A DNA stretch of 64,000 bases from Bolinopsis microptera (lineage: Eukaryota > Ctenophora > Tentaculata > Lobata > Bolinopsidae). The notes below the pieces were generated by a model. It ran no database searches. It saw nothing but the letters and a program-made list of their open reading frames with translations, and was not told where the DNA came from. Each line of letters begins with the position of its first letter. The stretch's first letter is position 1. The translations under genes were made by a program, and so were the position numbers. The stretch lies in contig NC_087080.1 in assembly GCF_026151205.1 (NCBI RefSeq), positions 13,587,337 through 13,651,336 on the forward strand, written 5' to 3'. This document shows, in pieces, positions 20,348 to 49,870 of this stretch.

Positions 20348-21761
20348 CTAAACTCATGGCTTTAGAATTAAAGCAGAATATAACTTTGGTTCAAAATAAA
20401 GGATCGCACCGAAACCAGATAAAATTCGTGTTACAGATTAGCTTGAACTGGATTTTTGCTATTCATTCGAGACGATTTTATTACCCACGATTAAACATGA
20501 CTTTAATTATTTCTTTTGACTTATATAACAGTTTCTTCTCATCATGACTTGGGGATTCCAATATAAGATGACGCATTTAATTTCTGACCTCCGATTTGAC
20601 CTTTCCTGTTGTAACCATGATTTGACCATTCATATAACCATGATAACAGTATTGTATAGATATTCATGTATTATTGTAAACTGAACATCATATTGATTTG
20701 TATTTTGATAATTTTCCCTTTCAATCCCATGCCTTTCTTATTCGCTGTTTGTTAATTATCATTCCCTCAAAATAAAGTGTTCTGACACAAATAGCCATGA
20801 CCATTCTTAATAGTCAGATTTGACTCTTCTGTCTGTCTTTTTATTCAGTCCGATACAGTGGAGAATGGGGATTACCTAAGATCACCTACAATATTTTAGC
20901 CCATCTTAATGGACGGTAATTTTGTAATACATTTAATAAAGCTAGTGTGTAAAAGGAAAACTTTTTAATTCATTTAAGCAATTACGTTGGTTATATTCAA
21001 ATAAAATATCGTTACCATGGATACAGTGATGGTAATCAGGGACACGTTAGTTGTATTTTAAAAGAAAATATTCTTAGTAATACCATACTATGCAAGTTTA
21101 ATTTTGAATATTGTGTGCACACATCAGTTAAGTCAAGTAAGATAAGGAAATCATGTCATTTAAAGTCACACCTTCTTTTAAATTAGGTCTGTTAAGTAAA
21201 CAGTAGTATAAAACTTAACTTTTCGTATGTCATTGAACGAGCTTTGTACAATAAAGCCCTTATTTACCGCGGAGTTTGGGGGAAGGAAACACCCGTGGTA
21301 AATTGGAGTTTGCGATAAATCGATGTATTGATTGTTCACCCTATGCATATTGAGCCTTTATTTGGGGAAAGGAAACGGCCGCAATAAATCAGAGTATGCG
21401 GTAAATCGGGGTTTTACTGTAATAAGTGAAAACGAAATGCTACTGAAAATCATGCAATTATTTTTATTCCATTGCAATAAGAAGCATTTTCGAAATGCCA
21501 AATACAAAAACAGTTTAAATTGAATAAGAAAATACGACACTCTGTTATAATTATAATATAAAGTCTCGGTCAACCAACTCTTTTGATCTCAATAATGTTC
21601 CCCAAACCAATCTGAAATACAAATAGTAATCACAGCCCTCTCTAACTCACTCAAAACAATTAGTGTATTTAACGAACGTCCTCCAAAAAGTTTGCGTTAA
21701 TTTTGTCAAGTATAAAATTGAGTCTGATGACGTCATTTGATGATGTCACTTGGTGATGTCG
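20348..21761. other. Convergent intergenic region SPAG8/ODF2
   Basis: This holds the 3' ends of two convergent genes. AATAAA on the plus strand at about 20395 and 20771, and TTTATT (AATAAA on the minus strand) at 21463-21468, are candidate polyadenylation signals. At 21255-21420 a ~110 base block with TTTACCGCGG/GATAAATCG is present in two divergent copies. No coding exon is seen. Confidence 0.45.
21724..21760. promoter_or_regulatory. Triple CRE-like repeat after ODF2 stop
   Basis: TGATGACGTCA, TGATGATGTCA and GGTGATGTCGC follow one another within about 36 bases directly beyond the ODF2 stop codon. The first contains the palindrome TGACGTCA, a bZIP (CREB/ATF) core. Similar clusters lie in two introns of the same gene. 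Confidence 0.35.
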
Positions 21762-22232
21762 CTAGTAATCCACATTGAAGCTGGCTGATTTAATGGGAGA
21801 CGGGGCACGTTTAAAGGTTGGTGAGAATCTGCCAGTGTAAGGAGTGCCCTGCTCCAAGGTCGTGTCTCCGAATACACTGCTGTACGACTGCTTCAGGAAG
21901 TTCACATAGTTCTGAGAAGAAGAAAAGGGTTTGATACAGGGGGACAATGCTGAACAAATAATTCGCCTGCCCCTAATTTATTTAACATGTTATAACACAT
22001 TCAGCTTAAATGTAATGTTATCGCCGATGTAACTTTGTAGATTAGATTCGATTTTTAGATTGTAATTACATCTTTTTAATAACATTTGCACACCGCCTTA
22101 AAAGAGTATAATATATCCTATTCAGATATTGAATCGATTTTAACCCAGTACCTGCATGCTTCTTGTGGTGTTATTAGCTTGTTCCAACCTCTCCCTCATT
22201 TCGTTTATTCTCTGTTGGGAGCGCTTCTCAGC
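21762..22232 (-). CDS. ODF2: ODF2/cenexin conserved C-terminal tail (two exons)
   Basis: Minus-strand exons 22232-22152 (27 codons) and 21911-21762 (49 codons plus stop), both in phase 0 with CAG acceptors and GT donor, encode MRERLEQANNTTRSMQNYVN and FLKQSYSSVFGD, then a Ser/Pro tail. This is the highly conserved end of ODF2/cenexin, where vertebrate proteins have a closely similar RSMQNYV-FLKSSYANVFGD block followed by a short Ser/Pro/Arg tail. The preceding match is found 15 kb upstream: the exon ending at 37598 is the ODF2 segment that normally comes directly before. This is therefore the orthodox 3' end of the locus, reached by splicing over two other 3' exons and a lectin gene. A possible further mini-exon at 22540-22600 was not accepted. 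Confidence 0.85.
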
Positions 22233-22239
22233 CTGGACA

Positions 22240-23715
22240 GGATTATAAATTGTAAAACTTGGCTTACTTGTTTGTCTAATTGGAGAAGACAAACAAGTTG
22301 AAAACTTGGCAACATGTCGATTACAATCTCGAGTTAAAAATATAGATTATTACGTCATATAATAGAAAAACAATTTAAAATCACTCTCGCACACACACAC
22401 ATTTGTCGGTTTGTCAGTTTGTCAAGTATATAAGTATAAGTGAATATAATTGAAGTAAATGGTATCATTTTTATAATCTAGAAAAAAGTTAGAAATGTCG
22501 AATATTGAATTGATGATAATTTCTATAGCTAAATGCTAGAGTCTGGCTTCCCAGAAGTAGCGGCTCTTTTGAGGAGACCTGAAAGAGATGACTGAATGAT
22601 TAAATGAAAAATAATTATTGAACTAGACTGTATTATTGAATCAACTATCTAACACTCAAGTAACGACGAAGCAACCTTTCCCAAAGCGAGGGTATAAATA
22701 TGCTTTGTTCATTACACTTCCCAAAAACTGGCTAATAACGACAGTAAGAGTATAATGTGTCGTAACTGTCAGCATTAATGTTAATAAAAACTTCACAAAA
22801 CGCGTCGCACATATCGCAAAGTAGGTATGATGAAAGCGCAAAAATGAATTTAGTGCCGGACAAGTTGGCGATATATTTTACTGGTGCTATCTTCAAATTT
22901 TCATTTGACATAGTAATTGTTAGATTATTAGTATTACCCCGACCCGTAATAAATATGATTCATCTAGGGATGACTGGTTATTTTCTGGTAAAAATGTGGA
23001 ACTTCGTTTTGGAAATTTGCCAAATCCAAAAGATCTTACATTGATGAATTTGCCAACCCGACCACACTAAAATCCGAGCACAGCGAATAAAAAGCGGATC
23101 AAAGATTGCATCACGAGCGGCGAATGATTTCATCCTCCGTACCCCATATTTAGTGGTTATCATATTACAAAAATATTATGGCTAAGCAAGGTGGCTGCAC
23201 CGGTAGCAGAATCAATGTAAATGGCTTATACATATTGCTTAATAAGTTGAAGTCAAAGTTGAACTCAAAAAACACCATTAATGCTTAAACCTAACTGAGT
23301 CAGAGGGTGGTGAGCAATTACTAGTCCTGGTTGAGGCCGGAAGTTTGAGATCAAACCAGTGCAAGTGCTTAATTATTAATACTGAAATAAAATGTGTTGC
23401 TCTCCCTGCACATCTCAACTTGAAAGACGTTTAGGCAGTTATGTTCTGGTACATAACAAGTAACTTCCCCTCTAATATACTTAACGATCGCGATGAACGA
23501 TAAAACTGCAAATTGCAAAACCGTACAAGTTGTAGATTACTACTATACTGTGGTATGAACTTGACATGGCAAGCAGGAGGAGCTGAGAACTGATTAATGA
23601 AATGTAAGTTTATTAACCGCCGTATATAATATTTACCCATGTTACACTACCAGGGTCAGCCTCAGGGCGGTTATATATACAGGGCCCTATATAAGTATAT
23701 ACCATGGAGCCTTGG
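22240..23715. other. Intron of ODF2-like gene, non-coding
   Basis: No exon I can support. An open minus-strand piece at 22555-22590 after TTTCAG reads as a short tail with stop (SPQKSRYFWEARL), but it has only one splice border and is doubtful. Confidence 0.4.
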
Positions 23716-23717
23716 TC

Positions 23718-24880
23718 ACAGTGACGCGTAACCATGGTTACAGTGTACACATTACCATGATCACAGTGTACACGTTACCATGGTCACAGTGTACACGTAA
23801 CCATGGTTACAGTGTACACGTTACCATGGTCAGATTGTACACGTTACCATGGTCACAGTGTACACATTACCATGGTCACAGTGTACACATTACCATGATC
23901 ACAGTGTACACGTTACCATGGTCACAGTGTACACGTTACCATGGTCACAGTGTACACGTAACCATGGTTACAGTGTACACGTTACCATGGTCACATTGTA
24001 CACGTTACCACGGTCACATTGTACACGTTACCATGGTCACAGTGTACACGTTACCATGGTCACATTGTACACGTTACCATGGTCACATTGTACACGTTAC
24101 CATGGTCACATTGTACACGTTACCACGGTCACATTGTACACGTTACCATGGTCACATTGTACACGTTACCATGGTCACAGTGTACACGTTACCATGGTCA
24201 CCTTGTACACGTTACCATGGTCACAGTGTACGCGTTACCATGGTCACAGTGTACACGTTACCATGGTCACCTTGTACACGTTACCATGGTCACAGTGTAC
24301 GCGTTACCATGGTCACATTGTACACGTTACCATGGGTACAGTATACACGTTACCATGGTCACAGTGTACACGTTACCATGATCACAGTGTACGCGTTACC
24401 ATGGTCACAGTGTACACGTAACCATGGGTACAGTATACGCGTAACCATAGTCACAGTGTACACATTACCATGGTCACAGTGTACACATTACCATGATCAC
24501 AGTGTACACGTTACCATGGTCACAGTGTACACGTAACCATGGGTACAGTATACGCGTAACCATGGTTACAGTGTACACGTTACCATGGTCACAGTGTACA
24601 CGTTACCATGGTCACAGTGTACACGTAACCATGATCACAGTGTACGCGAACTACCATGGTCACAGTGTACACGTAACCATGGGTACAGTATACGCGTAAC
24701 CATGGTTACAGTGTACACGTTACCATGGTCACATTGTACACGTTACCATGGTCACAGTGTACACGTTACCATGGGTACAGTATACGCGTAACCATGGTTA
24801 CAGTGTACACGTTACCATGGGTACAATATACACGTTATTATGGTCACAGTATACGCGTAACCATGATCATAGTCTACACA
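23718..24880. repeat. 23-bp minisatellite made of two palindromes (~50 units)
   Basis: The unit GTAACCATGGTTAC + A + GTGTACAC is 23 bases. The 14-mer and the 8-mer are each perfect palindromes in the purest copies; common variants are GTTACCATGGTCAC and CACATTGTACAC. The array reads almost the same on both strands. Because 23 is not a multiple of 3 it is open in several plus-strand frames, giving long HCTRYHGH/VTMVTVYTLPWS-type frames that are not genes. It lies in the long ODF2 intron. Confidence 0.95.
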
Positions 24881-24889
24881 AAATTGCAT

Positions 24890-25818
24890 GATTACAAAAA
24901 GCCAATTACTAAAAAAACAACTATCAAGATACATTCGGGTCAACCCAAACACACCATGTACGATACCACAGAAAAAGTCACACATTAGAAAATGCTACCG
25001 CTCCTTCCGTATATCACTTATTATATTATATAAACATCACATTATGTAAGGGGGCACGCTAAGACATTATGCGGTTCTGGTTACATGAGAATACAGACAG
25101 TCTACGTGAAACGCCGGCTCCTTACTCGTCATCGCTCACTTGGGGAATTTAATTTAAAGTTCAATAATACTTGAAGACTTTAATCGTGAATTTCGTGAAT
25201 ACTATTTATAAAGTTGCCACTTTAACTCTTTTCTAAGTGCGACCTCATACTTAAAACGCTGTTTAAGTATGACCTGAAGCCGGTTGGTGAATACGGGCCT
25301 AAGATGATATAGGAATCCGAAGAATCAGTTCTGAGGAATTGGTAGTGATTTTAAAATTTGGAGTTCACCTAATTTATAATTTTGGGAAGATTTCCGAGAG
25401 TTTACAATAGCTGATCCTCCCAATACTTGAAGGCGCCAATAATAGGGTTACTGGGTTAGTATTAGATGTTCATTCCTGACAGTATTCCAGTAACTTCATA
25501 ATAAGGGTGATTATTAATCTTAATCTCTATGCGTGACTAACTTTAACACGTTTTATATGTGGCTCTGATAAACAAACTAAAACCTGACCCCAACCTTTAC
25601 CGAAGCATCTACAAAAACCGTAACCTTAACGAGAAATTTAACCCACTTCCTTATATGCGCCATGTCACACTCACATGATCAAAACAGTTTATTGCTGATA
25701 ACTCTCTATTTTAACTCGATTTTATTTAGTTAGATTCGGAATAAGTAAAACGGTAAAAAATACGTCAAATCATGATACCTTCAACCGCAGGGGGCCCTTT
25801 AAATTTTTAATTTAATTA
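24890..25818. other. Intronic non-coding stretch
   Basis: No coding signature; ordinary AT-rich sequence between the minisatellite and the DNA-transposon remnant. Confidence 0.4.
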
Positions 25819-25824
25819 GATGTA

Positions 25825-26643
25825 TTACCTTATCGGACCTTATTTGGACGGACATTACTTGAACGCTGGAGGCCCTAGCGTTCATCTTAATGTCCGTTCA
25901 AATAAAGTCCGTTCAATTAATGTCATATGACAACTATGAGAACTTTATTGTGCCGTAAGTTAACGACGGAAAGGTTCTCCTTGGTCTGCCGGAGGCCCAG
26001 AAAACTCTACTAGTATATGATGTTTTCAAGGGTCACTTGGCGGAAAAAGTCAACGAAATCATGACACTCAACAACATTATAGTTCATGAGCTAGTCCCCG
26101 CCAACATGACAAACTTGTTCCAGCCTCTAGATATTACGGTAAATCGTGTTGCCAAGGACATTGTCCGACGTTTTTATAGTTCATATTACTGAGGGGAGGT
26201 AATGAAACAGTGCTAGGAAAGCTCCACGTGATGTTAAGGTTAACCTTAAGTTGTCGAAGATAAAACCACTTCACGCCGAATGGCTTGTAAAAGTTAACAC
26301 TGAAATGCAGGACCAGGGTAGTTTGATAAAAAAGGTTTCCACAAAGCTAGAAATCACTGATACTTGTTTAAGCATGGACTATTTCATGCACGAAAACCTA
26401 TTTAATGAAGATGATATGTGATATTAGACACTGATGATGTACACATATTTTAACATTTTTACTGCTTAATGACTGCTATTCTTACTTACTGTATAAAAAA
26501 TGGATTAAAAAATCATTTGCTGAAATTAAAAAAACGTCAAAAATTTAAAAAAATTCGGATTTTTGATGGTTTTGAATGCCTTCGAGCGTTCATATTAATG
26601 TCCGTTCACAATTATGTCCGTCCAAATAAGGTCCGATAAGGTA
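25825..26643 (+). mobile_element. Decayed DNA transposon with TIRs (pogo/jerky-like)
   Basis: Terminal inverted repeats TACCTTATCGGACCTTATTT (25826) and its complement ending at 26643 frame an 818-base remnant. Further inverted blocks with GGACGGACAT and AGCGTTCAT extend inwards. GATGTA flanks both sides (25819-25824 and 26644-26649), a candidate target duplication. Inside are the remains of a DDE-type transposase on the plus strand. The short length shows a large internal deletion. Confidence 0.7.
25968..26192 (+). pseudogene. DDE transposase fragment
   Basis: The plus-strand frame reads LPEAQKTLLVYDVFKGHLAE, then NNIIVHELVPANMTNLFQPL and DITVNRVAK, ending at TGA 26190-26192. The spacing of an Asp after a hydrophobic strand, GH, and the P-x-N-x-T-x-x-x-Q-P-L-D motif is that of DDE_1 transposases (pogo, Tigger, jerky, CENP-B relatives). 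Only about 75 codons remain; the sequence beyond is full of stops. Not functional. Confidence 0.7.
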
Positions 26644-26719
26644 GATGTAGATTGATTAAGCACTCTAGAAATTAGTAACCTATTGGCTTGGAGGACTTCG
26701 CCGCTTCGACGCGCCGCGC

Positions 26720-26785
26720 AAACTAGCATTCTTGCTAGTTTCTCTCCTGACAAGATCGTTGCTCTGCTTCGCAGAGCAACGATCT
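26720..26785. repeat. Two adjacent perfect hairpins
   Basis: AAACTAGCA/TGCTAGTTT (26720-26741, 9-bp stem) is followed by AGATCGTTGCTCTGC/GCAGAGCAACGATCT (26753-26785, 15-bp perfect stem with a TTC loop). They sit in GC-rich sequence within an AT-rich intron, probably the core of a small non-autonomous element. Confidence 0.6.
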
Positions 26786-26789
26786 GGAA

Positions 26790-28280
26790 GGGTTGACATA
26801 GTCAATCAACCTATTGGCAAATGGGCTTGGATAATAATACGATAACACAAAGCAGGCATGTAGCAGCAGTATATTTAAAGTAAAATCTCATATTAAAGTA
26901 TATAGTGAGATAATGTCCATAGCCAAATAACCAAGTGTCTACATTCTGCAGCAATGTGTCCTTAAGATATAGTTCATATAGCAACTAAGTAGCAAATCAC
27001 ATTTATCAATAAATTAATTCAATATCATAGTGTCATACATAATTACTTTCCCAATTTCATCTATACATCGTAAATCCGGTAAAAAGTGAAGCGAGGAATT
27101 ATTCGTAAGGCCAGAATCGACACATTACAGCCATGAATGCTATTTTTGATGAATATGTATAGTTTTACTGAGTCTGAACGTCGCCAGCAGCTCCTCTCTA
27201 TCTCCACCATTCCTTCAATCGTTTAGTAACAAAACCTGCAGTCCTCAGGGAAGTTTAGCTAAGATAGAACTGCGTGTAAACGGTTAAGGCATTATATTTT
27301 GATAGATTAGTGCATTATATTCTGATAGACCAGTGCAACTGTTTGTGTCGAAACAAAAGCTTCTTTGAGTTTGACCTCCTGGAGTTTTCCACTCAAGTAC
27401 TCAACTTCACTTGGACAAAGCTAGCCGCTATAACGTGGAGGGAAGGTTTGAACACGACCACATCGAATGGGGTGAACACTGAACAGTAATGATATCATTC
27501 AACAACGTCACTGCATGACGCAAAAAGAAAGATGGTCTTGTTTACAAAAACTTTCACCGTATGAGTATTTTTCCGATTTTTTACGATATCCCGATCGAAT
27601 ACTTATTTTAGAAATATCTTTGCTTTCTAATTCTCATTCGTCACATAGTGACGAAAGTTTGGACTTTCGATAAGTACTTATTAAATACGTAAATTTAAAA
27701 GTACGACTAGTGCCACGTACTTTTTCGAACCAACATGTTTATTTTTAAAGATTCGACTTTTTTTGTGATAAGAAATATTATTATTGGACGCAATATTTTT
27801 AGCCAATGAACAATTCAAAACTCGTAATTTAAAAAAGTAAATCAGGACAATCAGGATAAAAATCAAAGCCAACTTAGCTTGTATTTCTATTTTAATACAG
27901 TCGTATTACTATTTTTAGACATTTTTCTTTCGTGCGTGATTTTTTTTGGGACAGTCCTTTTTATAAAAATTTAAAGGTACGTATGACACCGTCGAATTGA
28001 AAAGTACGACTAGTCCGTACTATTCATCTCAGATCTGGATCATTCGTGACATTTAATTAACACTAACAGAGGGATGGATAAAAGAAGACACCATTTTTTA
28101 GATAACTACAATACTCACTATGAAAAACTATAGACAGTACACAAATAAGCGACAAACATTTACAATTCATATCACATTCAACCATGCTAATATTTTTTTA
28201 AATGTCGAAAACTATACCAAAATCATCGTAAAATAAGATGCCAAATAATCAAGATCAAGAATGATCCATAATGTTGACTG
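26790..28280. other. Intronic/intergenic stretch downstream of lectin gene
   Basis: AT-rich. A GTACGACTAGT motif occurs at 27700-27715 and 28000-28012. No gene seen. Confidence 0.4.
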
Positions 28281-28289
28281 TCCAATGAT

Positions 28290-29315
28290 CTAAGAATCTG
28301 GGCACTGGCAAGCAAACGGTCTCCTCCTACCCTTTTTATTGTCGAATGAGTCGTCGAATTGTCCCCATCTGGAGATCGCCAGAGCATGCTGTCCGCCATT
28401 GCCTGACAGAAACTGAGCGTTATCCTTACCTGGTTTAGTCCTCCACGGCACATTCCACGTCTCCACTAACTCTCCATCCAGCCATTTCCAGACTCCCTCT
28501 TCTTCCAAATCGTTTCCACCGACCCACACCCAGTTGTTGTTGTCCCAGGTTGTCCAGGAATCGCTAGCATTCCCCAAAAAGTGCACTATAGCAGATTTTA
28601 TCTCCTGGACCTCTGCACCATTCCGAACCTTGGCCAGGTGGAGTCCAGCTGCAGCACACGCATCTTTGGCACTTTGCCAGGTCTTTGGCGTGTTGGAAAG
28701 GACGTATTTACCCTTGTAGTCGCAGGCATATGGATGTGTCTTGTACTTATAGGTGTCGTCCCATTTTCCATCGTGGTTGATCCTCATCTGGTTTTGATAA
28801 CACATTGGCTTTTCATTGCAACCCTTTTTACCATTCTTATAAGTGTTCTGGTCGGGCTGGTTTTTCATCCATTTCTTAAAATCAGTAGGATTAGATCCAT
28901 CAGCCCACTCCCAATCCGATCCATCGTAGGGTCCGGGTTTCTTCAAAAGGTTGTTCTTGGTCTTTCTTAGACCAGCCCAGACCCATTTTGTGTCAGTCCA
29001 CTTACTTTTTGGCTGCTTTTTCTCCGGGTAAGCCATTTCAAGGAGGATTTGGAGATCTTGGTTCTTTTCTTGTTCATTCACCGTCACCAGGTTTCCTTTC
29101 TCCCCCACTCCAGAGCCAATGTCAAAATTCTTGCAGTTGTTGTCCGCTTCATCGTAGGTAACTTTTTCAGAGAAGAAGACAATGTGACAGGTGGTGAAGA
29201 CTCCAGCGTCAAGTCCCTTCAATAGTTTCTTGAGTCCCTTAATCTGTCTCTTGTCCATACCCCCTGCAGCAGTGCACCCTAACACTGCCAGCAGAAGAAG
29301 ACAGTGCTTAATCAT
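28290..29315 (-). CDS. Secreted protein with two C-type lectin domains
   Basis: A single-exon minus-strand frame of 341 residues. I start it at ATG 29315 because the codons upstream are TTG and GTG. Residues 1-18 (MIKHCLLLLAVLGCTAAG) form a signal peptide. Two C-type lectin-like domains follow: CTLD1 at about 37-193 (CHIVFFSEKVTYDEADNNC, WVWAGL, QPD at the long-loop site, GKWDDT, YACD) and CTLD2 at about 197-338 (TWQSAKDACAAAGLHLAKV, WVWVGG, WKWLDGE, WGQFDD, FACQC). CTLD1 has QPD, the calcium/galactose-type motif; CTLD2 lacks EPN or QPD and may not bind sugar through calcium. A role in mucosal defence or adhesion is plausible but inferred. A TATA-like box lies upstream. The gene sits inside an ODF2 intron on the same strand, with no acceptor-like AG before its ATG. 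Confidence 0.85.
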   Translation of the reverse strand: MIKHCLLLLAVLGCTAAGGMDKRQIKGLKKLLKGLDAGVFTTCHIVFFSEKVTYDEADNNCKNFDIGSGVGEKGNLVTVNEQEKNQDLQILLEMAYPEKKQPKSKWTDTKWVWAGLRKTKNNLLKKPGPYDGSDWEWADGSNPTDFKKWMKNQPDQNTYKNGKKGCNEKPMCYQNQMRINHDGKWDDTYKYKTHPYACDYKGKYVLSNTPKTWQSAKDACAAAGLHLAKVRNGAEVQEIKSAIVHFLGNASDSWTTWDNNNWVWVGGNDLEEEGVWKWLDGELVETWNVPWRTKPGKDNAQFLSGNGGQHALAISRWGQFDDSFDNKKGRRRPFACQCPDS

Positions 29316-29354
29316 GATCAGCTCAAAACGCACCAATCAGGAGTAAATCAAGGA

Positions 29355-29370
29355 AGATTATATAATATGT
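29355..29370 (-). promoter_or_regulatory. TATA box of the lectin gene
   Basis: ATTATATAAT on the minus strand lies about 45 bases before the ATG, a fitting place for a TATA element with a short leader. Confidence 0.5.
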
Positions 29371-29379
29371 AGATCAAGA

Positions 29380-31690
29380 TATGTTCGATTAGTAAGTTAA
29401 CAATTGCACAACTGAGACTTGCAGTTTTGAGGACCTGGATAATAGTCCTCCTCCTCATCGAGAATTACAAGAGCGGTCACAGATTACGTAACCACTGACT
29501 GGAGGGTGGTCATCTTCAAATTCTCTGTTTTGATTGATAGTTTTGTGTCACGTGGTACAAAGACCGTGTTCTAATTGGTTACTCAGTCAAAGCCCATAAA
29601 GGCTCATCGAGTTCAGTCATTTTAGAGGTTTGTAAATATGAATGTTAAGCTCTACGCGTTCTACTGTTCGTAGGAAACTGTTTATAATAGTTACACATGC
29701 ATTGTTTTCTAATTACTAAAACCCTCATGGTATCAAACTTTCAGTGTACCGTGTGAACATGTGACCAGAACACTAACTCGTCAAAAGGACGATAGCTTTT
29801 ACTTTTGCTCCCCTAAAATTGCTCCATCTATACTCTGTACAGAGAAAATGCACTACAAATAAATTGAAGATGGAAAAATGTTAGATCCTCGCTAACAGTA
29901 ACAAATCTGTTTGGGCTGGTACAGTGGTACCAGTCAATTGACAGCGTCAGCTTCTATAATTGGAACTAGTCTTTAACGTGTCCGTGAGTTCTTCAGAAAA
30001 CTTCTAGACAATAATTGTGAAATTATAGAGTGGTGATTTAAGGGGGGAATGGGTATTTTTGAGAAACTTGATTTCGAGATAGCTGACCAACAAACTAGGA
30101 CTTGACACACGCTGCAACCCCTTTTGATCGCTTCGCGTGCACGAGTGGTATACAACGTGTAGCAAAATAGGACCGGTAACTGATTTTTTGAGGGGGTCCC
30201 GGACCCCAACCGCCAAACGTTGCCCGCGGGGCGACCACGCCCATATTTGGTAAATTAGGCCTAATTTAGCCATATACCCTTAACATGCCCAAAACCCAGG
30301 TTTATAGTACTCTTCTTGTAGTTAGTGGTCTCCTAAACTCGAATATGAAATTTCATCAAGATTGGACAAAAAATGACTGAGTTATGACCCAAAAACCATA
30401 TGTCCATATTTGGGCATACGCACCAAATTTGGTAAATTTCGTCCCATAAATTGGTCAAATATCAATATTTTTGAATGAGACTTACTTTATATGAAAGGTG
30501 AGCCTAAACTACATATTCTCTGTAAGTTATAGCTTTATAAATTTGTTTAAATGTGATCGATACTAAGGCGAAAAGACCACCAAAAATGAACTAAACTGCC
30601 CGTATCTTGGTTCGCGATATTCGCAGAATTGATCTCATTAAAATTGTAACAACTCAATTAGTTTTCAAAATTTTGGCATGAAATTTTCGGAATCGACTCG
30701 AAATCGCATCTCCACCTTATTTTGAGAAAAGATTTTTGATTTAGGCCTCCAAAGAAATTTGGCGGCCAAATTCCTAAATTTGCTTTGTATCACGTTGTGA
30801 CACCGACGGTCGTTTCACGATACAGGGGGAGTCGCGCACTTCGTGCGCGGCGGGTCATACAACGTATGACAAAATTTGCTCAGCAAAAAATGCCCCCCCC
30901 CCCCCCCCCTAAACAGACAAGTAGCTCAGCGCCTCTTGTATGTGCTCCAATTGATATATTAATATTGATAGATTCCCGAATTTAAAACATTAGCAATAAT
31001 AATTGTCAGTTATGCACATTGTGAGATTGAAAGATCTAGTCTCATTGTTCTAGACTCATTGTTCCACTGGCACTACTAACCTCGTTTTCTTTATTACGTA
31101 AGTCGACATCAGAAACGAGGTTGTTCGAGAGAGAATAACTCAACTTTACTTGACCTAGCTTGCTACATTAGTTTTATCCTTTATTTTCTTTTTTAAAGTT
31201 CACATGTTCACGACTCACGTAAAGTATAACTATAGATGTTGTTGCTTGTATGAGTATCATTCTTACAGTATTATCAAACTTCATGGCGTATTCTTCAAAC
31301 TTCATGGCGCACTTGCACTTCAAATTCATTTAATATTTTGAGGCATATGTTTAGTCAGTTTAGAGATGTCGAACGAAGTTCTATTAATCAAGAACTAGAA
31401 GATTCTTCGGGGGATAGCGGAGAGCAAGTACTATATATAGTAGCGGTTAATTTTAGAGGATATCAATTATCGTTGTGCGTTGGGTCGCTGGATATACATT
31501 AGATTCGAAAGCATAATAACTTGGTTCCTCGTAAACTGTAACGCAGCTGTCGCAGCCAGGAATAAGTGCGGCGATCTGTTTTCTGAAGGTGAGAGTTTTA
31601 AATTTTTCGCACATTGCCTGAATGTAAATTGAATTGCAAATTCGAGAATCTTTATTAGTAGCCAAATTGAAATAGTGAATGCTTCTTATC
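29380..31690. other. Intronic stretch with unclassified repeat-like sequence
   Basis: Positions 30180-30860 contain phrases like those of the fold-back element (GACCACGCCCATATTTGGTAAA at 30231, mirrored CGTGCACGAG/CGCACTTCGTGCGC pieces at 30137 and 30834), suggesting a related degenerate repeat. A run of about 18 C lies at 30892-30909. No coding exon is supported. Confidence 0.4.
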
Positions 31691-31696
31691 GCTCGT

Positions 31697-31794
31697 GCGC
31701 GCCACCCGACTACCATGAGCCTAAGGCTCATGGTAGTCGGGTGGTAGTCGGGTAGTCGGGTAGTCGGGTGGCTCATGGTAGTCGGGTGGCGCGC
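31697..31794. repeat. Perfect inverted repeats with GTAGTCGGGTG tandem
   Basis: Positions 31697-31721 and 31770-31794 are perfect 25-base inverted copies. A 20-bp inner hairpin (31702-31721/31725-31744, loop TAA) uses the same left arm, so two alternative folds compete. Between them lie short tandem GTAGTCGG units. Confidence 0.75.
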
Positions 31795-31799
31795 AAGTA

Positions 31800-33975
31800 T
31801 ATTATTATTGCTGAATGTGCAACCATTGTACTTTCAGGCGAATGCAGTGGTTTACCTTCTAGTTTCTACGTTACCTAGCTTGCTAGTCTATTGCTCGCTC
31901 CTCTCAGGTATAGAGGTTCAGGAAGCTTCAAAAGAGCGCCGCGTACAGTACAGAAATTGGCGAGACAGGTAACCGCATACGTATTATTATTTTTTAAAAT
32001 AACGGGTGATACTCGTAAAATATTTGTTTCAACTCGGCGCGCGTCCTGGTAGGTTATAAACCTACAACATACGTAGACTGGTGTGGATACAGATACTGGG
32101 CCTGGGTTCCATAATCAAAGACAAAACAGGAGCAGAAATGACTGTTAAGTGCAGCTCTTTAGCATCGCCATCAGGTCTGTATTTTTACGAACGAAATGTT
32201 TTGTTAAGGCCGGGGTCTATTTTAAAACAAAATCCTTTCTCAATCTGATCAGATCATATTTTGACCTGAAAACACAATCAGTCAAACATAATATGCATAT
32301 GATACTGGATGCAATTAGAAATAAAATAGTTATGCTGAGATGTTTAGATATTAAGACCACCATAGAAAATTAGAAATCTAATTCATAGTTTTACTTTTAG
32401 GTTATAAACTTACTTCTTTTACTTTTATTAAACCACTGTGTACTGTAGTTTCTAAGCTATGCATATAGAGAAGAAATCTAATAATGTACAACTAAGTACA
32501 GTGTACACTGTTTGCTCATTTTTACATTTTAGGTTTCTGCGCGCGTTGACATACGCTGCATGCCACTTTTTATCTCACAAATTATCTCTGATATTTGGAT
32601 ACGAAACATGTATCAATGCGCGCGTAGTTGTGAATTTTTTACTGTGACTGTGATGAGTGTGATGGCGCATCTAGCGATGACGATGTAAAATCGAGCTAGA
32701 CTAGGCCTAGCCTGAGCTGAGTGAGCAATTACTTATACCCTCAAAATACAATGTACAATCATGTTCGTTTTAGGTTTAACCAGCGTCTCCTATACTGTAT
32801 ACTCAAATATATCAGTCAATCTTACGTATAATGTGGCTATGATTTATTCGTCTCCAGTTTTTTTCAGGCAATTCAGAGTAACGTGGTATTGTATTTAAAT
32901 GTGATACTGCTTTTGTAGCCCAACCAGACGATAGTTTCTGCAAAATTTGAGACAAAATTATATTTATAATGCAAGCCTAAATATACCGCGAATGTTTACT
33001 TTAAAAAGAGTTCAGCTTATAACTTTTCCTGGGGACCATGCTTAGCTTACTAGTCTATAAATCTATTGTTCGCTCCTCTCATTGTTCAGGAAGCTCGAAA
33101 AGAGCGCCGCGCACAGGGATTGGTGAGCCAGGTAACTGGGGACCCCACTATAAGTATAATGTTGATAAATAAAGATTCGGCGGAATAACAGGCTGAGCGT
33201 TACCTCATACCTTGTACCTGGCACGCCAGTTCCAATGCATTGAGAGGAGCAAGCAATAAACTAGCAAGCTAGGTAAGCTGAGCACCGCCCAGTAATTTAT
33301 AACTTAGAATTAGATTATCTAGATCGCGATCATCTGTCATCGTTCTTGTAGCGCGGTGCGCTACTAGTACTGTGCCGCGCCGAGCTGCCATGAATTGACA
33401 TCGTCAATTAATCATCGTTCATTTTGTTTACAGTCTAGTTAACGGCAACGCCAAGACTTATGTTTTCCTTATCATTTCCTTATGACTTAACTATATTATA
33501 TGTATTATAATTTTATCTTTTACTTTTAGATTAGCCGTGGTAATAAAACACGACAGTCAGATAGTGATACACGGTCGTCATACAGCTACGATATTTAAGA
33601 ATTACTGATACAATTACATGCATGATAAACGATCTACCGTCACAATCACAATGTATGAGTTCAGAATTATAGTGTTCAGATACGCGTCACGTGATAGGAA
33701 AGTTGTTTACAAATTCAATAACTCAGTTTTACTATGATAATAAAATGTCGAGTCATACCTATAGTTTTGAATCGGTGCAAATAAAATGTTTTAAAACAGC
33801 TAAAATAAATTAATCAATTAAAGTCAAACAAAAATAAATTACTCGCTTGTTATAAGTCTGTTAAGAAAAAACAATCCGCGTCATATGTTAAGAAAATTCA
33901 TGCAACCTATTCCAAAAGTATACAACTTAACAAAACACATTATTACAATTCTTCCGAGAGTTTAAAACTATAGCT
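31800..33975. other. Intronic stretch with MITE fragments
   Basis: Blocks at 31845-31970 and 33035-33135 share TAGCTTGCTAGTCTATTG..GCTCCTCTCA and AAAAGAGCGCCGCGTACAG. A further inverted set lies at 33140-33300, with AAAGATTCGGCGGAAT as in the 4.2 kb MITE, and 33340-33415 resembles the GC-rich palindromic element at 9.5 kb. These are fragments of the same non-autonomous families. No gene seen. Confidence 0.5.
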
Positions 33976-33985
33976 ACATTGTGCG

Positions 33986-35134
33986 CTATGTCGCAGCAAC
34001 TGGCTCACCATTTTTCTTACCCTTACTCTTATTCTTATTCTTTGATCCCTTTGTCCACGGAAACAAATACGATTTCGATTTGGTTTTCTCATCCTGATGG
34101 GATTCAGGTGAATCGTGCCCGTTTTGTAAATGATGCCCGTTCAATTTCCGAGTTGTTCGTTCGTCAACATATTTAGTGGCATGAGGCATGCTGAGAACTC
34201 CACCCAACATCATCTGATGCTTATCATCACTGTCGTCATCAGGGGAGACAGCCCTACCTCGGGGTACGACAGGGTATACCCCAGATTGGTGTTCCCCTGG
34301 GTACTGTCTTGTAACCCTTATAAAAGGAGGAGGTGGGGTGGGTTCTCTGGTTAAAACCTCCTCGGGCATGATGCAGTTATCTACTAAATGCTCTAGTTCA
34401 GTTAAGGAGGAAGTTCTAACAATATTGCTATTAGACTTGTCGAAGTATCTATGAGTACGAGTGGGAAGTTCAGAGGAGTGAGTTTTCTGGCGGCAGGGAT
34501 CCCGATAGGTTGATCCAGCCCTCTCGAACTCACCATTGTCACTGATATTTCCCAGTTTGGGAGGGTTCAACAAGCTATGATCGGACCTGGCAGATCCCAC
34601 TTTCCAGGGTGTTGAATAGTGAGGTAAAATCTCTGACTGAGAGGACCCCGCTCTCTCTGCAAGCCTCTCTCTGGGAGTAGCAGCCACCGAATCTGACTTT
34701 ACACTGAGCGCCTTTTCTCGTTCTACCAACATCTGGTGAAACAGGTCGGTTTGACTACGGAGGAACTCCTCGAAATGAAGCCTGGAGAGGATGTAAGAAT
34801 CCAGGAGACGAGGGTCACACGAATCATAGGGACCTGCCAGGGGACTTGACGAGTGGTACTGGTTACCCTGGTGACTCGGACTAGTTCTAGTGTGTACTGC
34901 GTGTCTGGCTCGCGACGTCAGGGACTTGTCCTTGTCAAGGACTTCGTTGGAGATATTGGTAAATTCGGCTGAATGTGAAGGATTGAGAGGGAAATTAGCG
35001 GGACAATGGGGTGGAAAGTTAGTGGGGTACCCAGACAAGATGGAGGGGCCGTTCTTGTCCCTTTCTATCTGAACCTCGTCTCTATACGCTCCAGCTGTAC
35101 TCTCTGTGGATGTAGCTGCCCCGTGGCTCCGCAC
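33986..35134 (-). CDS. Alternative 3' exon of ODF2-like gene, disordered 382-residue tail
   Basis: On the minus strand TTTGTTTAG precedes base 35134, and the frame runs 383 codons in phase 0 to TAA at 33986. It must be a 3' terminal exon: no ATG lies near its start and the reading opens exactly at the acceptor. The product is Ser/Pro/Arg/His-rich and largely disordered. It includes a helical stretch (LDSYILSRLHFEEFLRSQTD, residues ~110-140), TSSLTELEHLVDNCIMPEEV, TREPTPPPPFIRV (proline-rich, SH3-like) and a Lys-rich end (KGSKNKNKSKGKK). The nearest compatible upstream exon is the phase-0 ODF2 exon ending at 37598. Mammalian cenexin and ODF2 isoforms likewise differ at their C-termini. It could instead be the last exon of an unrelated gene with unseen 5' exons. 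Confidence 0.65.
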   Translation of the reverse strand: MRSHGAATSTESTAGAYRDEVQIERDKNGPSILSGYPTNFPPHCPANFPLNPSHSAEFTNISNEVLDKDKSLTSRARHAVHTRTSPSHQGNQYHSSSPLAGPYDSCDPRLLDSYILSRLHFEEFLRSQTDLFHQMLVEREKALSVKSDSVAATPRERLAERAGSSQSEILPHYSTPWKVGSARSDHSLLNPPKLGNISDNGEFERAGSTYRDPCRQKTHSSELPTRTHRYFDKSNSNIVRTSSLTELEHLVDNCIMPEEVLTREPTPPPPFIRVTRQYPGEHQSGVYPVVPRGRAVSPDDDSDDKHQMMLGGVLSMPHATKYVDERTTRKLNGHHLQNGHDSPESHQDEKTKSKSYLFPWTKGSKNKNKSKGKKNGEPVAAT

Positions 35135-35139
35135 CTAAA

Positions 35140-36875
35140 CAAACAATTGAGCATTTCTGCTGGAGAGTGTAGGGTAACTGTTAATGTTAGCATACAGATG
35201 ACAGACAAGCAGTGGGAAAATATTGCCTCAAACCATGTTGTGCTACAAAATGTACACAAAATCTGCAGCTAAAATAAGCCCCAATATCAGTGTTTAGGCC
35301 ACGTTATCAATCAATTAATTTATTTGATATCATCAGTGAAACAGAAACGTTTCTAATAAACTCTGAAAAAAGGGACTGTGTTTATCATTGCTCTGCTGTA
35401 CTAGGGTACTATACAGAAGAGTTGGCAGGGCTATGTCTATATCAGGAATCAAGAGAGGAATCTCAGTGCTTTGGTTGATTTTTCAAGAACAATGTAAACT
35501 TCCCGAGATTTTGATAAAGAGGACATTTAGTAGGAGTATGACTCGCGACGATAGAATAGATTATGCCCAAATTTATACAGTCACGTGGGGTCACGTTTCG
35601 ATACAGAACGTTTTGTTGGGCAGAGCAAGCATAAGGAATACTAAACTCAAGTTGAAAGGTGCTTCAAACATTTGCAAATTATCAACGCTTCTTGATAGTG
35701 CTAGAAACGAAAAACCGTTAAACCCACACGAGCATTGGTGAAGTGATATGATGTGTTGCGGTGGTGATTTTCGGATAAATAAAGAGATCAATTAGAGGAT
35801 AAAATTAATTATAAATTTGAATTTTCAATCAATTAACGCAGACTAACGCATTTCAAAATTTTTAGTTGCACATTAAAAACATAATTAGCAGCGAATAAAA
35901 AGGGGGGGAAAACGGCCGTGTCAAAGTACTTCAACCATGAACCTTTATTTATCCTCTGTCAACATGAACTAATTGTATAATATCTAAAGTAAATCTTAAA
36001 TACTTAATATATTTTAATCATATTATATATAATATGTCCTATGGCGTGTCATTAAATCTATAAATCATTGATATAAAACTTTGTACTGTGTTATAATTCG
36101 ATATATTATATTCTGTCTTTTTAAAAGAATCGAAAATTTGAAACGATCGATCTGAAAACGTTTCAACTTCACCCGTACTGCGACAAACTTAGAACACTGA
36201 AGGAATAGGTCTATTGTTGCTGTTAGTTGTGTACAGAGCAATTTCGTAAACTTGCCATTTCGTACACACGGAATTATTCAAATTGAAGCCAGGTTGCCAA
36301 CATTAATGACGGGAAAATAAAATACTGGAAGCCAATCTCGAAAAATATTTCGACATCGGGAACACACAACAACAGACCGTCAGACCCATTTCATAAGTTT
36401 GTCACAGTTTTACTACACTCATATAATTTTACTGTGTAATATATCCATGGTTACAATACTACAAAAATCAAATCAACATAAATTATTATAACGTAAAAAA
36501 GCTGGTTCATCATACTGTTCGTCATCACTGTCCAGCTGAAGTGGAGTAAAAATTGAGGATCCAAATATCTTTAGGGTGCCCCGTATCTTGTGGCAATGAA
36601 AAAAGGTCTTGTCAGTAGAGGGGGGTTTTGTAGGTATTCTCAGCAGTACAAGTAGGATGATGTAGGATGATGTAGGGAACACATGTATGAGACAGGAATT
36701 TCAGCAACATGAGAATAATACAGAGTGAGTTCCAACGCGATCCCAGCACGTGTTACAGCCTTGAACATGCACTTTTTAAAATAGGTCTTCTTAGGAAGAT
36801 GTATTGTAGAATATATGTAGTATTTTTTGACAGGAAATTTGGCGAACTTGGTACCATATCAACAATGTGGTATAA
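35140..36875. other. Intron/3' flank between two alternative ODF2 3' exons
   Basis: AT-rich. TTTATT (AATAAA on the minus strand) at about 35943 could be a polyadenylation site of the 36883-37440 exon. A small frame at 35388-35741 (plus) has no domain. Confidence 0.4.
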
Positions 36876-36882
36876 AATCTGA

Positions 36883-37440
36883 TTAGAATCCTAGCAGGGC
36901 CATGCTGGTGCCTCCTTTCTTGGCCCTTCGACCCCCTGATCTCCCAGATCGGTCCTTTCTGCCAGCTCCTTTGTTATTAGAACCAGACTTAGTGTTCCGT
37001 TTACCTCCATCCATTCCAAACAACATAGCTCTATTCTTCATTCCCTTCCTTCCACTCATTCCGCCCATAGCTCCGTTATACTTGCCATTCATCGGTCTTC
37101 CGAACTCATCATACCCCATGAGTTGGTTGGTGGCCATCCTTTGCATGTAGTCCTCGGTGGTGAGCCCGTTCTGCTCCTTCTTCTTGGGAACCCTGTTTCC
37201 ATTCTCATCCTCAGTGCTCTCGCCGTCACTCACTTCATCCAGCCCGAGACGCTCTCTGTTCTGTTCAGCGCTCTTCAGCATCTCACTCCAATCAATTTCC
37301 TCCTCACTTTCACTCTCCGAGTCACTTCCAGTCTCACTCCCACTCTCCTCCATCCCCTTCTCTGGCTCTGACATGTTGTTATCAGTGCTGGGGGAGGCAG
37401 GAGGAGGGGGCAGGTTTGCAAGCTGCTCATCCACTGAAGG
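36883..37440 (-). CDS. Alternative 3' exon of ODF2-like gene, acidic then Gly/Arg-rich
   Basis: After a CTCCCCCACAG acceptor the frame runs from 37440 to the TAG at 36883, 185 residues in phase 0 with the exon ending at 37598. The tail is Pro-rich (LPPPPASPS), then acidic Ser/Glu (SETGSDSESESEEEIDW), then a possibly folded piece (MLKSAEQNRERLGLDE, LTTEDYMQRMATNQLMGYDE), and ends Gly/Lys/Arg-rich (GRKDRSGRSGGRRAKKGG). It replaces the conserved ODF2 C-terminus in this isoform. The family of the tail is not recognised. Confidence 0.75.
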   Translation of the reverse strand, partial: PSVDEQLANLPPPPASPSTDNNMSEPEKGMEESGSETGSDSESESEEEIDWSEMLKSAEQNRERLGLDEVSDGESTEDENGNRVPKKKEQNGLTTEDYMQRMATNQLMGYDEFGRPMNGKYNGAMGGMSGRKGMKNRAMLFGMDGGKRNTKSGSNNKGAGRKDRSGRSGGRRAKKGGTSMALLGF

Positions 37441-37597
37441 CTGTGGGGGAGAGTTAGCTGTTAATTTTAATACAAAATATTTCCTTGTGTTTGCCTGAGG
37501 AGAGTGTTACATATTCATATTATATAGGGTCTGTCAGGTTTGTAGGGTCGGTCAGCTCTCAGTTTCTCACACTCACTCTCACTTTTACCAATGTTAC

Positions 37598-40500
37598 CTC
37601 ATCTTTCAGTCTCTTTAATTGGGTCTGAGTGTTTGAGGCTCGGCCGAGTTGAGCCTCCAGTTCCTCAATGCGAGTTGTTGAACTGCGCTCCTAAATGTTG
37701 GACAGTTTAATTATCGTACCTCGCACCACCCTCACGACGTCACGACACGTGATGACCATATTAGGAGTGCCACGTGACGTGACGTCACAGCACTGCGCTC
37801 ACACACAGTTGAGAGGGTTTATGAAATGGAATGATCAATGTAATGAAAAGTTATCCTAGTCTTCTTGCAAGAGTTAATTAGACAGGCTAGGGAATGATAT
37901 AGTAGGCATGGAAAGGTAGACGTGGAAAGGTAGGCATGGAAAGGTAGGCATGGAAAGGTAGAGAGGGCAAAAGAGACCAGATTTGGACTATCACGTGACA
38001 TTTGAAATGCAGGTACTACCTTCAGCAGGGTCTTCTCCTTGGTTGTTTCTATTTGTCGTCTGCAGTCACCTAGAGCTGTCTCAAGCCCTAAAGACAGCTC
38101 AGCATTTTCTCTCATAAGCTCCTCGATCCTTAGCTACAGACGAAAGGTATAAATCATCATGTGCTAATTCATTCAATCAAAATGTTAATTTGTGTATGAT
38201 TTAAGGCTCATTTTTATTTGACAAAAGATTTGTTTATTTTTAATGTAATGATAATGGTACTGATAGTGAAATGGTTGAAAAATGAGTGATGATAATCTCA
38301 CAAGCTTGCTCACAACACGAATAGCTGAAATTGAATGCTTGAAATCAACACACTCGCGCACATATATATTCGTAGTATTAGCCTTGCACGTGCATTGTAA
38401 TGAAGCGCATTACTTGCTCTAGCTGAAACACACGCACCAGTGCACGTGCAAAAAACACGGTGCTTACTTCAGCGGATACACAAGTACACAACAGAATTCT
38501 CAGCAAACACCCACACACAAGCCTACACCGCGTAACACACGAGTGAAATAAAGTCGGTTCGACCATCTAAATTTCACAATGGTTAACCAGGCAGGATACT
38601 GATTATCGTGGTCTAGTTATTCTGGAATACTCTACCTGATGTGCCTCGACCGCATCGTCCTTCTTAGATACCAGATCCATTAGATTTTTGTTGTGTAAAT
38701 CAGCTTCCAGAACTTTCCTAGAAGAAAGACGCCGTTACAACAATACTGCGCGTTCATATCTAATAATTTACGATGTGCTCAATGCTTCATATATTTTCCA
38801 TAGCACGGTAAATGACCGATAGCCACTTTTCTTGTTATTTAAAACACTTACAGATAAGAATCTCGTATCTTACTAAAAATTTATTTACCTCTCGTGACTC
38901 TGAGATTTGTTTGATAACTCGATATTATCCTCGTTCACAGCATGTATTTTCGTCTTTAGTTTTCCAATCTGACCCTGGAACAAATCTATCTTTTTCTGTA
39001 GCTCCTCAACAGTCTGGTTTTTATCAGCTAGCTGAGAATTTAGTGCCTCTGATTGTGCCTCTGCGTGTTGGTATCGAGCCTCTGCTGAACTCAACTTCTC
39101 CGGGTATTGGGATAGTTCGTTTAACTTTTCTTGGTATTCTTCTCGCACCTGTAGGGTAGTGGGGATGAAACATATTTCAATACATTCACTACCATTATGG
39201 ACGTCACAAAGATCGAACATAACAGAGAATTACAATTTTACTAGGGGTTTTACAAGTACGTTAACACTTTTACCTTAGTGAAGATAGCAATACAATCCAG
39301 GATTGTTAAATTTAATAGAAAGTTAAATCAGGTGAGAGATGGGGGGGGGGGGAGTTGGGAGCACTGAAGCAGTTAAACTTAAGATGCTAAACACCCACCT
39401 TCTCAAGTTCTACGTAGTTGCCATGCTCCGAGGCGCCCCTATCTCTTTCAGCCATCTCGACTCGCTGATGAAGCATCATGTTGTCTGTCTTATATCTATT
39501 CAATAGTTCCTCCGCTTCCCTCAATCTCTCCTTAAAGAATTCTGCTTCTTGTGCAAGACGCTCCGCTTCAGCATTGTTTGAGGCGGCCTGAAAACGTTCA
39601 ACAAATTTAGAAAACAAGTTTAAGCGGACAGCTTATTACTTTATTAGCTTAACTACAGGATTTCCAGACGGACAGTTGATGAAAGCTTGATTAAAGTCAA
39701 ACGCGGTCAGACAGAATTAATTCTGTGACTTAACTCTTACAACAGAGTATGATGAAAATATAACTTACAGCCACTACAACTTCTTCCTCTTTTTCTGCTA
39801 ATTTATCGTTTAAACTGTCAACAGATACCTGGATGGTTTTATACTGATTATAAACTAACTAAAGTTTCTAGTTTTTAGAGCAGCAAGAACACACTTATAA
39901 TCGTTAGAACAATTTTATTGAGTTGCAAGTTGCAACTGTTGAGGATAAAACATATTGTCAATAAACCAGAGTTTCGGAATATAAAACAGAACTAAAGCTT
40001 CTCACCCAATTTCAAACCCTGCCACATTCCACACACATTAAAATGTTTGTACAAGATGCAAACACTCATCACACCATAATATTGTACTTCATTCACACAG
40101 AATTTCCAAAATTTTAGCGCGGAAATTTGAACCTACTTGATTAGGAATGGGCGCTTTTGAAGGATTTTTCCGATGACGCAGGCTCATATCTTGAAAATGT
40201 GTGCCAAGTTTTGCAGCATTTTTGCTAGGTAGTCTAGTTCTGGGCATCTTTACAAATCCCAAACAATTATCAAGAATTAGGAAAAGATCGAAGAAGTAGC
40301 AACAAGAAACTTTGTGTTTGTAAAATAAAGCATCACGGCGGGAGAGAGAGTATGTCATTAGCTCGCTCTCCGTCTACATGCGGAAATTTTAGAGCGGCTA
40401 ATTGATACTTCTTCTTAATGCTTCATTAGCATCTAAAGCTTGTCATAGCCAGCATTCTAAAATTTAAGTAGCAATCTGACAATTAGTTTATGAACAATAA

Positions 40501-49124: not shown

Positions 49125-49870
49125 TATGAAAGGAAGTTGGCTGGTCTATAAATTTATAAAGTTAAGGTAGAAAGTTCAATGGTCTACAAAAGTACAAAGG
49201 TAGGAAGTTTACTGGTCTACAAATAGGTAGGAAGCTTACTGGTCTACAAATAGGTAGGAAGTTTACTGGTCTACAAATAGGTAGGAAGTTTACTGGTCTA
49301 CAAATAGGTAGGAAGTTTACTGGTCTACAAAGGTAGGAAGTTTACTGGTCTACAAATAGGTATGAACTTTACTGGTCTACAAATAGGTAGGAAGTTTACT
49401 GGTCTACAAATAGGTAGGAAGTTTACTGGTCTACAAATAGGTATGAACTTTACTGGTCTACAAATAGGTAGGAAGTTTACTGGTCTACAAATAGGTAGGA
49501 AGTTTACTGGTCTACAAATAGGTAGGAAGTTTACTGGTCTACAAATAGGTAGGAAGTTTACTGGTCTACAAATAGGTAGGAAGTTTACTGGTCTACAAAT
49601 AGGTAGGAAGTTTACTGGTCTACAAATAGGTAGGAAGTTTACTGGTCTACAAATAGGTAGGAAGTTTACTGGTCTACAAATAGGTAGGAAGTTTACTGGT
49701 CTACAAATAGGTAGGAAGTTTACTGGTCTACAAATAGGTAGGAAGTTTACTGGTCTACAAATAGGTAGGAAGTTTACTGGTCTACAAATAGGTAGGAAGT
49801 TTACTGGTCTACAAATAGGTAGGAAGTTTACTGGTCTACAAAAGTAGGAAGTTTACAGGTCTACAAAAGT
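49125..49870. repeat. 27-bp minisatellite (GGTAGGAAGTTTACTGGTCTACAAATA)
   Basis: About 25 copies. The core, 49362-49830, is almost uniform, and copies decay at both edges, as expected from unequal exchange. Since 27 is a multiple of three it gives a 161-codon GRKFTGLQI repeat frame; no start context, splice site or non-repeat coding part supports a protein. Confidence 0.95.

What the first reader, a model, noticed from the sequence alone, without database searches (positions are those of the whole stretch)
21762..37690. Three mutually exclusive, phase-compatible 3' ends for one ODF2/cenexin gene
The exon ending at 37598 is in phase 0. Three terminal exons open in phase 0 exactly at an acceptor: 37440-36883 (acidic/GR-rich), 35134-33986 (382 disordered residues, PPPPF motif) and 22232-21762 (the conserved ODF2 end). 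Mammalian ODF2 and cenexin isoforms are known to differ at the C-terminus, so this animal may have a parallel, more elaborate switch with novel tails that could decide centriole versus axoneme targeting.
Basis: partly seen in the sequence, partly recalled or inferred. Interest (0 to 1): 0.78.

Follow-up and report, generated by a model that had tools for sequence, protein, structure and literature searches.

The report
ODF2 gene with possible alternative tails
An animal's gene for ODF2/cenexin, a centriole and sperm-tail protein, carries its normal conserved end plus two unrelated protein-coding pieces in the long intron before it; they could be alternative ends of the same protein, but without RNA data they could also belong to other genes.

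Summary
The exons are real; the three-way switch is plausible but not shown. The exon ending at 37598 is phase 0, and T1 (37440-36883, 185 aa) and T2 (35134-33986, 382 aa) are open in phase 0 behind usable acceptors. The third end is two exons, 22232-22152 and 21911-21762, not one. It is the true ODF2/cenexin end: similarity to human ODF2 (recalled letters) runs through both junctions. T1 and T2 have no relatives in Pfam, the PDB or the viral and prokaryote collections, no similarity to ODF2, and are single-copy in the animal's own genome. ORFs this long do not arise by chance. Phase agreement is weak evidence: 11 of 13 modelled ODF2 junctions are phase 0. ODF2 continues about 14 kb beyond the window: human 197-828 is collinear with exons from 77.9 kb (continued coordinates) to 21.8 kb, with introns of 35.5 kb and 15.4 kb. 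An extra ATG exon trio lies in the first; T1, T2 and a lectin gene lie in the second. Best reading: T1, less surely T2, are intronic-polyadenylation last exons that remove ODF2's conserved end. Rivals: an interleaved gene, or genes with their own ATG behind very strong acceptors inside T1 and T2.

The parts
42940..43002 (-). ATG exon of a trio (MELFYYC...), possible alternative first coding exon in the 35.5-kb ODF2 intron
   Evidence: phase 0, donor GTAAGT top 0.8%; single copy
42489..42680 (-). trio exon 2, acidic
   Evidence: acceptor top 16.6%, donor top 8.4%; single copy
41145..41330 (-). trio exon 3, basic/SP-rich
   Evidence: acceptor top 6.5%, donor top 6.5%; single copy
39769..39828 (-). 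ODF2 core exon; canonical ODF2 reaches it from 75326 (continued coordinates)
   Evidence: collinear with recalled human ODF2 across the junction
39399..39587 (-). ODF2 core exon
38889..39148 (-). ODF2 core exon, ends in phase 2
38636..38717 (-). ODF2 core exon
38020..38133 (-). ODF2 core exon
   Evidence: 53% identical to recalled human over 38 aa
37598..37690 (-). last shared ODF2 core exon, ends in phase 0; branch point
36883..37440 (-). T1: candidate proximal last exon, 185 aa, acidic then G/K/R-rich, stop TAA
   Evidence: single copy
35944..35949 (-). AATAAA that could end T1 transcripts
33986..35134 (-). T2: candidate middle last exon, 382 aa, mostly low-confidence model with one helix 108-147, stop TAG
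   Evidence: single copy
28290..29315 (-). Lectin_C gene with its own ATG, same strand, inside the 15.4-kb intron (not part of the switch)
   Evidence: Pfam PF00059 E 5.3e-8
22152..22232 (-). T3a: conserved ODF2 penultimate exon
   Evidence: 13 of 27 identical to recalled human
21762..21911 (-). T3b: conserved ODF2 last exon (NYVNFLKQSYSSVFGD..., stop TAG)
   Evidence: first 17 residues 12 of 17 identical to recalled human; of the remaining 32, 14 align and 4 are identical
21463..21468 (-). AATAAA after T3

Best explanation
This is a single-copy ODF2/cenexin gene whose canonical transcript ends with the conserved exons T3a and T3b. In the 15.4-kb intron before T3, T1 and probably T2 act as alternative last exons. 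If the donor at 37598 pairs with the acceptor 157 nt downstream (37440) and the message is cut after AATAAA 35949, the protein keeps the coiled coil but ends in an acidic, then G/K/R-rich 185-aa tail. If T1 is skipped and 35134 is used, it ends in the long T2 tail. If both are skipped, the conserved SMQNYVxFLKxSYxxVFGD end is made. Either tail removes the best-conserved end of the protein, so the switch would act mainly by taking away or replacing a docking end. Shown: exons, phases, ORF significance, identity of T3, single copy. Inferred: splicing of 37598 to T1 or T2, polyadenylation, function.
For: Long ORFs in phase behind usable acceptors. The T1 intron of 157 nt is like the gene's small introns. 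To make T3 the donor 37598 must skip T1's acceptors (8.0 at 37440, 11.7 at 37387), so proximal use is expected to compete. T2 needs a coding exon upstream: its first in-frame ATG is residue 135, the predicted helix 108-147 spans that point with its best-scored part at 121-140, and in 36882-35160 the only ATG-to-donor exons in phase 0 with donor score 1.5 or more encode M, MGLT and ML. AATAAA follows T1 and T3. ODF2 C-terminal switching by splicing is known in mammals (passages).
Against: No RNA data. No relative of T1 or T2 found, though no animal sequence collection other than this animal's own genome was available. No similarity of T1 or T2 to recalled human ODF2 (145 and 164 of 200 shuffles score as high). 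T2 codon use is weak, and its nearest AATAAA is about 1.1 kb after the stop. Phase 0 is expected anyway (11 of 13). Very strong acceptors lie 13 nt before the first in-frame ATG of T1 and 49 nt before that of T2 (11.7 and 12.0; 0.3% of 1770 minus-strand ATGs have as much within 60 nt), which fits separate 5' ends. Splicing 37598 to 37387, the strongest nearby acceptor, would give H and a stop.
Confidence: 0.5

Rival explanations
1. A separate same-strand gene is interleaved with ODF2: the ATG trio 43002-41145 splices straight to T1 (332 aa) and/or T2 (529 aa), skipping the ODF2 core exons. T1/T2 are then not ODF2 ends.
For: The trio and T1/T2 show no ODF2 similarity and bracket the core; all are phase 0. 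Canonical ODF2 does not need the trio: joining 75326 to 39828 aligns with recalled human ODF2 at score 116, the trio join at 95, a modest difference. Trio and T1 share an acidic stretch, but 7 of 200 shuffles score as high.
Against: It must skip six core exons. No known family is recovered from either join (best E 0.17).
Confidence: 0.15
2. T1 and T2 are small genes of their own nested in the ODF2 intron, each starting at its first in-frame ATG (T1 residue 23, T2 residue 135) behind a spliced or trans-spliced leader at 37387 and 34781.
For: Acceptors of 11.7 and 12.0 lie 13 and 49 nt before those ATGs; only 5 of 3499 minus-strand AGs in the window reach 11.5, these two, the ODF2 acceptor 21911, and two at 55060 and 52326 where I modelled no gene. 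A same-strand nested gene (the lectin) already lies in this intron.
Against: T2 is open for 134 codons before that ATG (1.8% of 5000 Markov copies of that stretch, 0.04% of copies with window composition), and the predicted helix spans it. The T1 tract is a CCN-rich run that encodes LPPPPASPS. Whether this animal trans-splices is unknown.
Confidence: 0.22
3. Only T3 is a normal ODF2 end; T1 or T2 is an internal cassette (for example 37440-37234, phase 0 in and out) or a rarely used cryptic exon.
For: A phase-0 donor of 7.9 at 37234.
Against: T1 stays open for another 116 codons after 37234, and T1 as a whole has coding-like codon use.
Confidence: 0.13

Closest known systems
Mammalian ODF2 versus Cenexin1 C-terminal splice variants
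   Same: One ODF2 gene, C termini said to differ by splicing; the Cenexin1 end is said to bind Plk1 and Rab8 (passages of PMC2894780 and PMC8061701).
   Different: Here the branch lies 76 residues before the conserved end and the alternatives add long new tails; in mammals, by recall, the short form stops about 190 residues earlier.
Alternative last exons by intronic polyadenylation
   Same: Proximal acceptor, stop and (for T1) AATAAA inside an intron of a longer gene.
   Different: Two such exons plus a nested lectin gene in one intron; usage not shown.
Nested genes in large introns
   Same: The lectin at 29315-28290 is one.
   Different: T2 lacks an early ATG, so is less gene-like on its own.

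Membership tests
ODF2/cenexin | Collinear similarity to ODF2 along the coiled coil | tested here: met
   recalled human 197-828 aligns collinearly with the assembled exons, score 784; BLASTP E 5e-39, 36% over 253 aa; human letters from memory
ODF2/cenexin | Conserved C-terminal block (SMQNYV.FLK.SY..VFGD) | tested here: met
   T3 only; T1 and T2 lack it
ODF2/cenexin | N-terminal region (human 1-196) | tested here: inconclusive
   not located: no match to it better than E 0.34, none in the 104-kb stretch; an ORF at 82.1 kb looks similar by eye only
ODF2/cenexin | Centriole appendage or sperm outer dense fibre location | not testable with these tools
   none
Alternative last exon of ODF2 | Phase-compatible acceptor and in-frame stop | tested here: met
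Alternative last exon of ODF2 | Poly(A) signal after the stop | tested here: inconclusive
   AATAAA 35949 for T1, about 0.9 kb after the stop; for T2 the nearest is 32848, about 1.1 kb after
Alternative last exon of ODF2 | Junction reads from 37598 | not testable with these tools
   no RNA data held
Plk1 polo-box docking as in Cenexin1 | S[ST]P motif in the tail (motif recalled) | tested here: inconclusive
   T2 has SSP and STP; T1 and T3 none, T3 has PSP; short motifs occur by chance

The most novel reading that the evidence does not exclude
A compact inner gene sits inside ODF2: its own start (trio 43002-41145) and its own ends (T1 or T2) borrow six ODF2 coiled-coil exons, giving 598- and 795-aa proteins that share only a middle part of ODF2 and lack both its N-terminal half and its conserved end, beside the full-length ODF2.
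Probability: 0.25. Interest if true: 0.6.

Novelty: new variant of a known kind. Interest (0 to 1): 0.38.

Why it matters
If T1 or T2 is spliced onto ODF2, an animal swaps the best-conserved end of a key centriole and sperm-tail protein for tails with no known relatives. That would give a natural test of what the conserved end does, and show C-terminal switching of ODF2 with tails unlike those described in mammals. If not, the locus is a warning about calling isoforms from phase alone.

Tried and rejected
Searches for relatives of T1 and T2 gave nothing: Pfam, PDB (best E 0.67 and 0.2), viral contigs and genome contigs. The last two collections are viral and prokaryotic, so absence there says little. 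A second ODF2 copy or retrocopy that would show a splice junction was sought and not found (7 of 12 matches are this gene, the other five have E 0.09 or more). The trio-core-T3 protein has no clear PDB match (best E 0.053, a coiled coil of another protein). Single-sequence models of T2 (mean pLDDT 46.6) and T1 (58.3) were not searched against fold libraries because they are low-confidence. An exon scan was not used as evidence for the trio or T1, because its codon table was trained on them. Of five paper searches, two looked for ODF2 in invertebrates and for ODF2 with alternative last exons (top 20 of 505 and of 404 seen): none of the titles was on point, 1 of 20 and 0 of 20 hold the word ODF2, and that one (PMC5602094) was not opened. 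The primary Cenexin1 papers are not held. PMC8816381 and PMC6702985 were read by passages only and gave nothing on the tails. A COX1 search to place the animal did not complete. No Rfam match at gathering score in the window.

Full report
What was checked. The window is one stretch of a 264.65-Mb, 232-contig assembly (C9:13587337-13651336); the animal is not named and I could not place it. The gene lies on the minus strand. From their acceptors T1 (37440-36883) and T2 (35134-33986) are open in phase 0 for 185 and 382 codons, while the other two phases close after at most 54 codons. Forty order-2 Markov copies of the window gave no ORF as long as 185 codons (longest 171). Generic splice-site scores put the T1 acceptor in the top 2.0%, T2 in the top 6.8% and 22232 in the top 2.3% of minus-strand AGs, and donor 37598 in the top 2.4% of GTs; the modelled core exons themselves range from the top 0.5% to the top 30.1%, so these scores allow but do not prove use. 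T1 has the codon use of the ODF2 and lectin exons (0.03% of 3000 random stretches reach it); T2 is weaker (1.0%; synonymous use alone 7.3%). T1's frame is in fact open from 37506, and 37494 is a second phase-0 acceptor (7.2).

The third end. It is not one exon. 22232-22152 (AEKRSQ...RSMQ) and 21911-21762 (NYVNFLKQSYSSVFGD...) are separated by a 240-nt intron, and the frame after 22232 closes after 30 codons. The block NYVNFLKQSYSSVFGDT is the best conserved part, 12 of 17 identical, against 21 of 63, 21 of 87, 6 of 28, 20 of 38 and 11 of 30 aligned residues for the core blocks; the last 32 residues align poorly, 4 of 14. So T3 is the ancestral ODF2/cenexin end.

The gene is larger than the window. 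The recalled N-terminal part of human ODF2 (1-588) has one clear match, C9:13663779-13664300 on the minus strand (E 3.3e-12; the only other match has E 0.34), about 12 kb beyond the window. Reading 40 kb further gave exons at 77936-77808, 77289-77158, 76892-76443, 76121-76012 (its donor looks like GC, uncertain), 75767-75716 and 75409-75326 in continued window coordinates. Joined to the core and T3 they align collinearly with human 197-828, score 784. Exon 39828-39769 therefore most likely continues from 75326 over a 35.5-kb intron; the local alignment across that join scores 116, against 95 for a join with the trio. The ATG exon trio 43002-41145, which looks like the start of the gene inside the window, lies inside that intron. 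It is an alternative start or part of another gene. Human 1-196 was not located. Trio, core, T1 and T2 are each single-copy in the genome at E below 0.09.

Is phase agreement informative? Hardly. 11 of 13 modelled canonical junctions are phase 0, and so are the three trio donors. What does bear on T1 is position: the intron 37597-37441 is 157 nt, next to core introns of 171-502 nt, and a transcript that makes T3 has to pass over strong proximal acceptors. What bears on T2 is the lack of any other start: its first in-frame ATG is residue 135, the best-scored element in its otherwise low-confidence model is a helix at 108-147, and in 36882-35160 the only ATG-to-donor exons in phase 0 with donor score 1.5 or more would encode M, MGLT or ML.

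What speaks against. Two of the strongest acceptors in the window lie inside the tails, 13 nt before the first in-frame ATG of T1 (score 11.7) and 49 nt before that of T2 (12.0). Only 5 of 3499 minus-strand AGs in the window reach 11.5: these two, the ODF2 acceptor 21911, and two where I modelled no gene. 0.3% of 1770 ATGs on the minus strand of the 104-kb stretch have an acceptor of 11.7 or more within 60 nt. That is what genes with their own spliced or trans-spliced 5' ends would show. The T1 case may be an accident of a proline-rich run. For T2 the 134 open codons upstream argue against it (1.8% of 5000 copies by its own composition, 0.04% by window composition). A lectin gene with its own ATG lies in the same intron and strand, so nested genes do occur here. 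A separate gene made of the trio plus T1 or T2, skipping the ODF2 core, also fits all phases.

How it most likely works. I give 0.5 to T1, T2 or both being alternative last exons of ODF2 chosen by competition between proximal splicing with intronic polyadenylation and skipping to T3. The effect would be loss of the conserved end. By recall, the human Plk1 docking serine of Cenexin1 lies in the last ten residues (SSPIRS), and T3 has a similar SPIKS; T1 and T2 would lose it. T2 carries SSP and STP, and PPPPF, which fits the recalled PPxxF motif of Homer EVH1 ligands; T1 carries LPPPP. These short motifs are leads only.

Comparison with what is known. [quoted passage not shown] The locus here would be a variant of that known kind, with different tails and, by recall, a different branch point. 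I found nothing in print on ODF2 alternative last exons in invertebrates in two searches, which see only open papers and of which I saw the top 20 listings each.

Verdict. Interest 0.38.

Noticed in passing
43002-41145 (minus): Three-exon ATG unit with an acidic then K-rich 147-aa product inside the 35.5-kb ODF2 intron; single-copy, no Pfam family; possible intronic promoter or separate gene.
   Followed up: partly
29315-28290 (minus): Lectin gene in one open frame with an apparent signal peptide (by eye), nested in the ODF2 intron on the same strand; Pfam finds one Lectin_C domain, a second upstream is suggested by eye.
   Followed up: partly
23713-24879; 49198-49867: Large tandem arrays of 23-bp (about 51 copies) and 27-bp (25 copies) units that stay open as long repetitive ORFs.
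   Followed up: no
5015-8019: Units of about 178 bp at 5409-6252 and 6885-7563 look reverse-complementary, flanked by near-identical 111-aa ORFs at 5015-5350 (minus) and 7684-8019 (plus): a large inverted repeat by eye.
   Followed up: no
11525-13456 (plus): Reverse-transcriptase-like ORFs of a non-LTR element (by eye).
   Followed up: no
L020/L019, continued coordinate 76012 (minus): ODF2 exon whose donor appears to be GC rather than GT.
   Followed up: no
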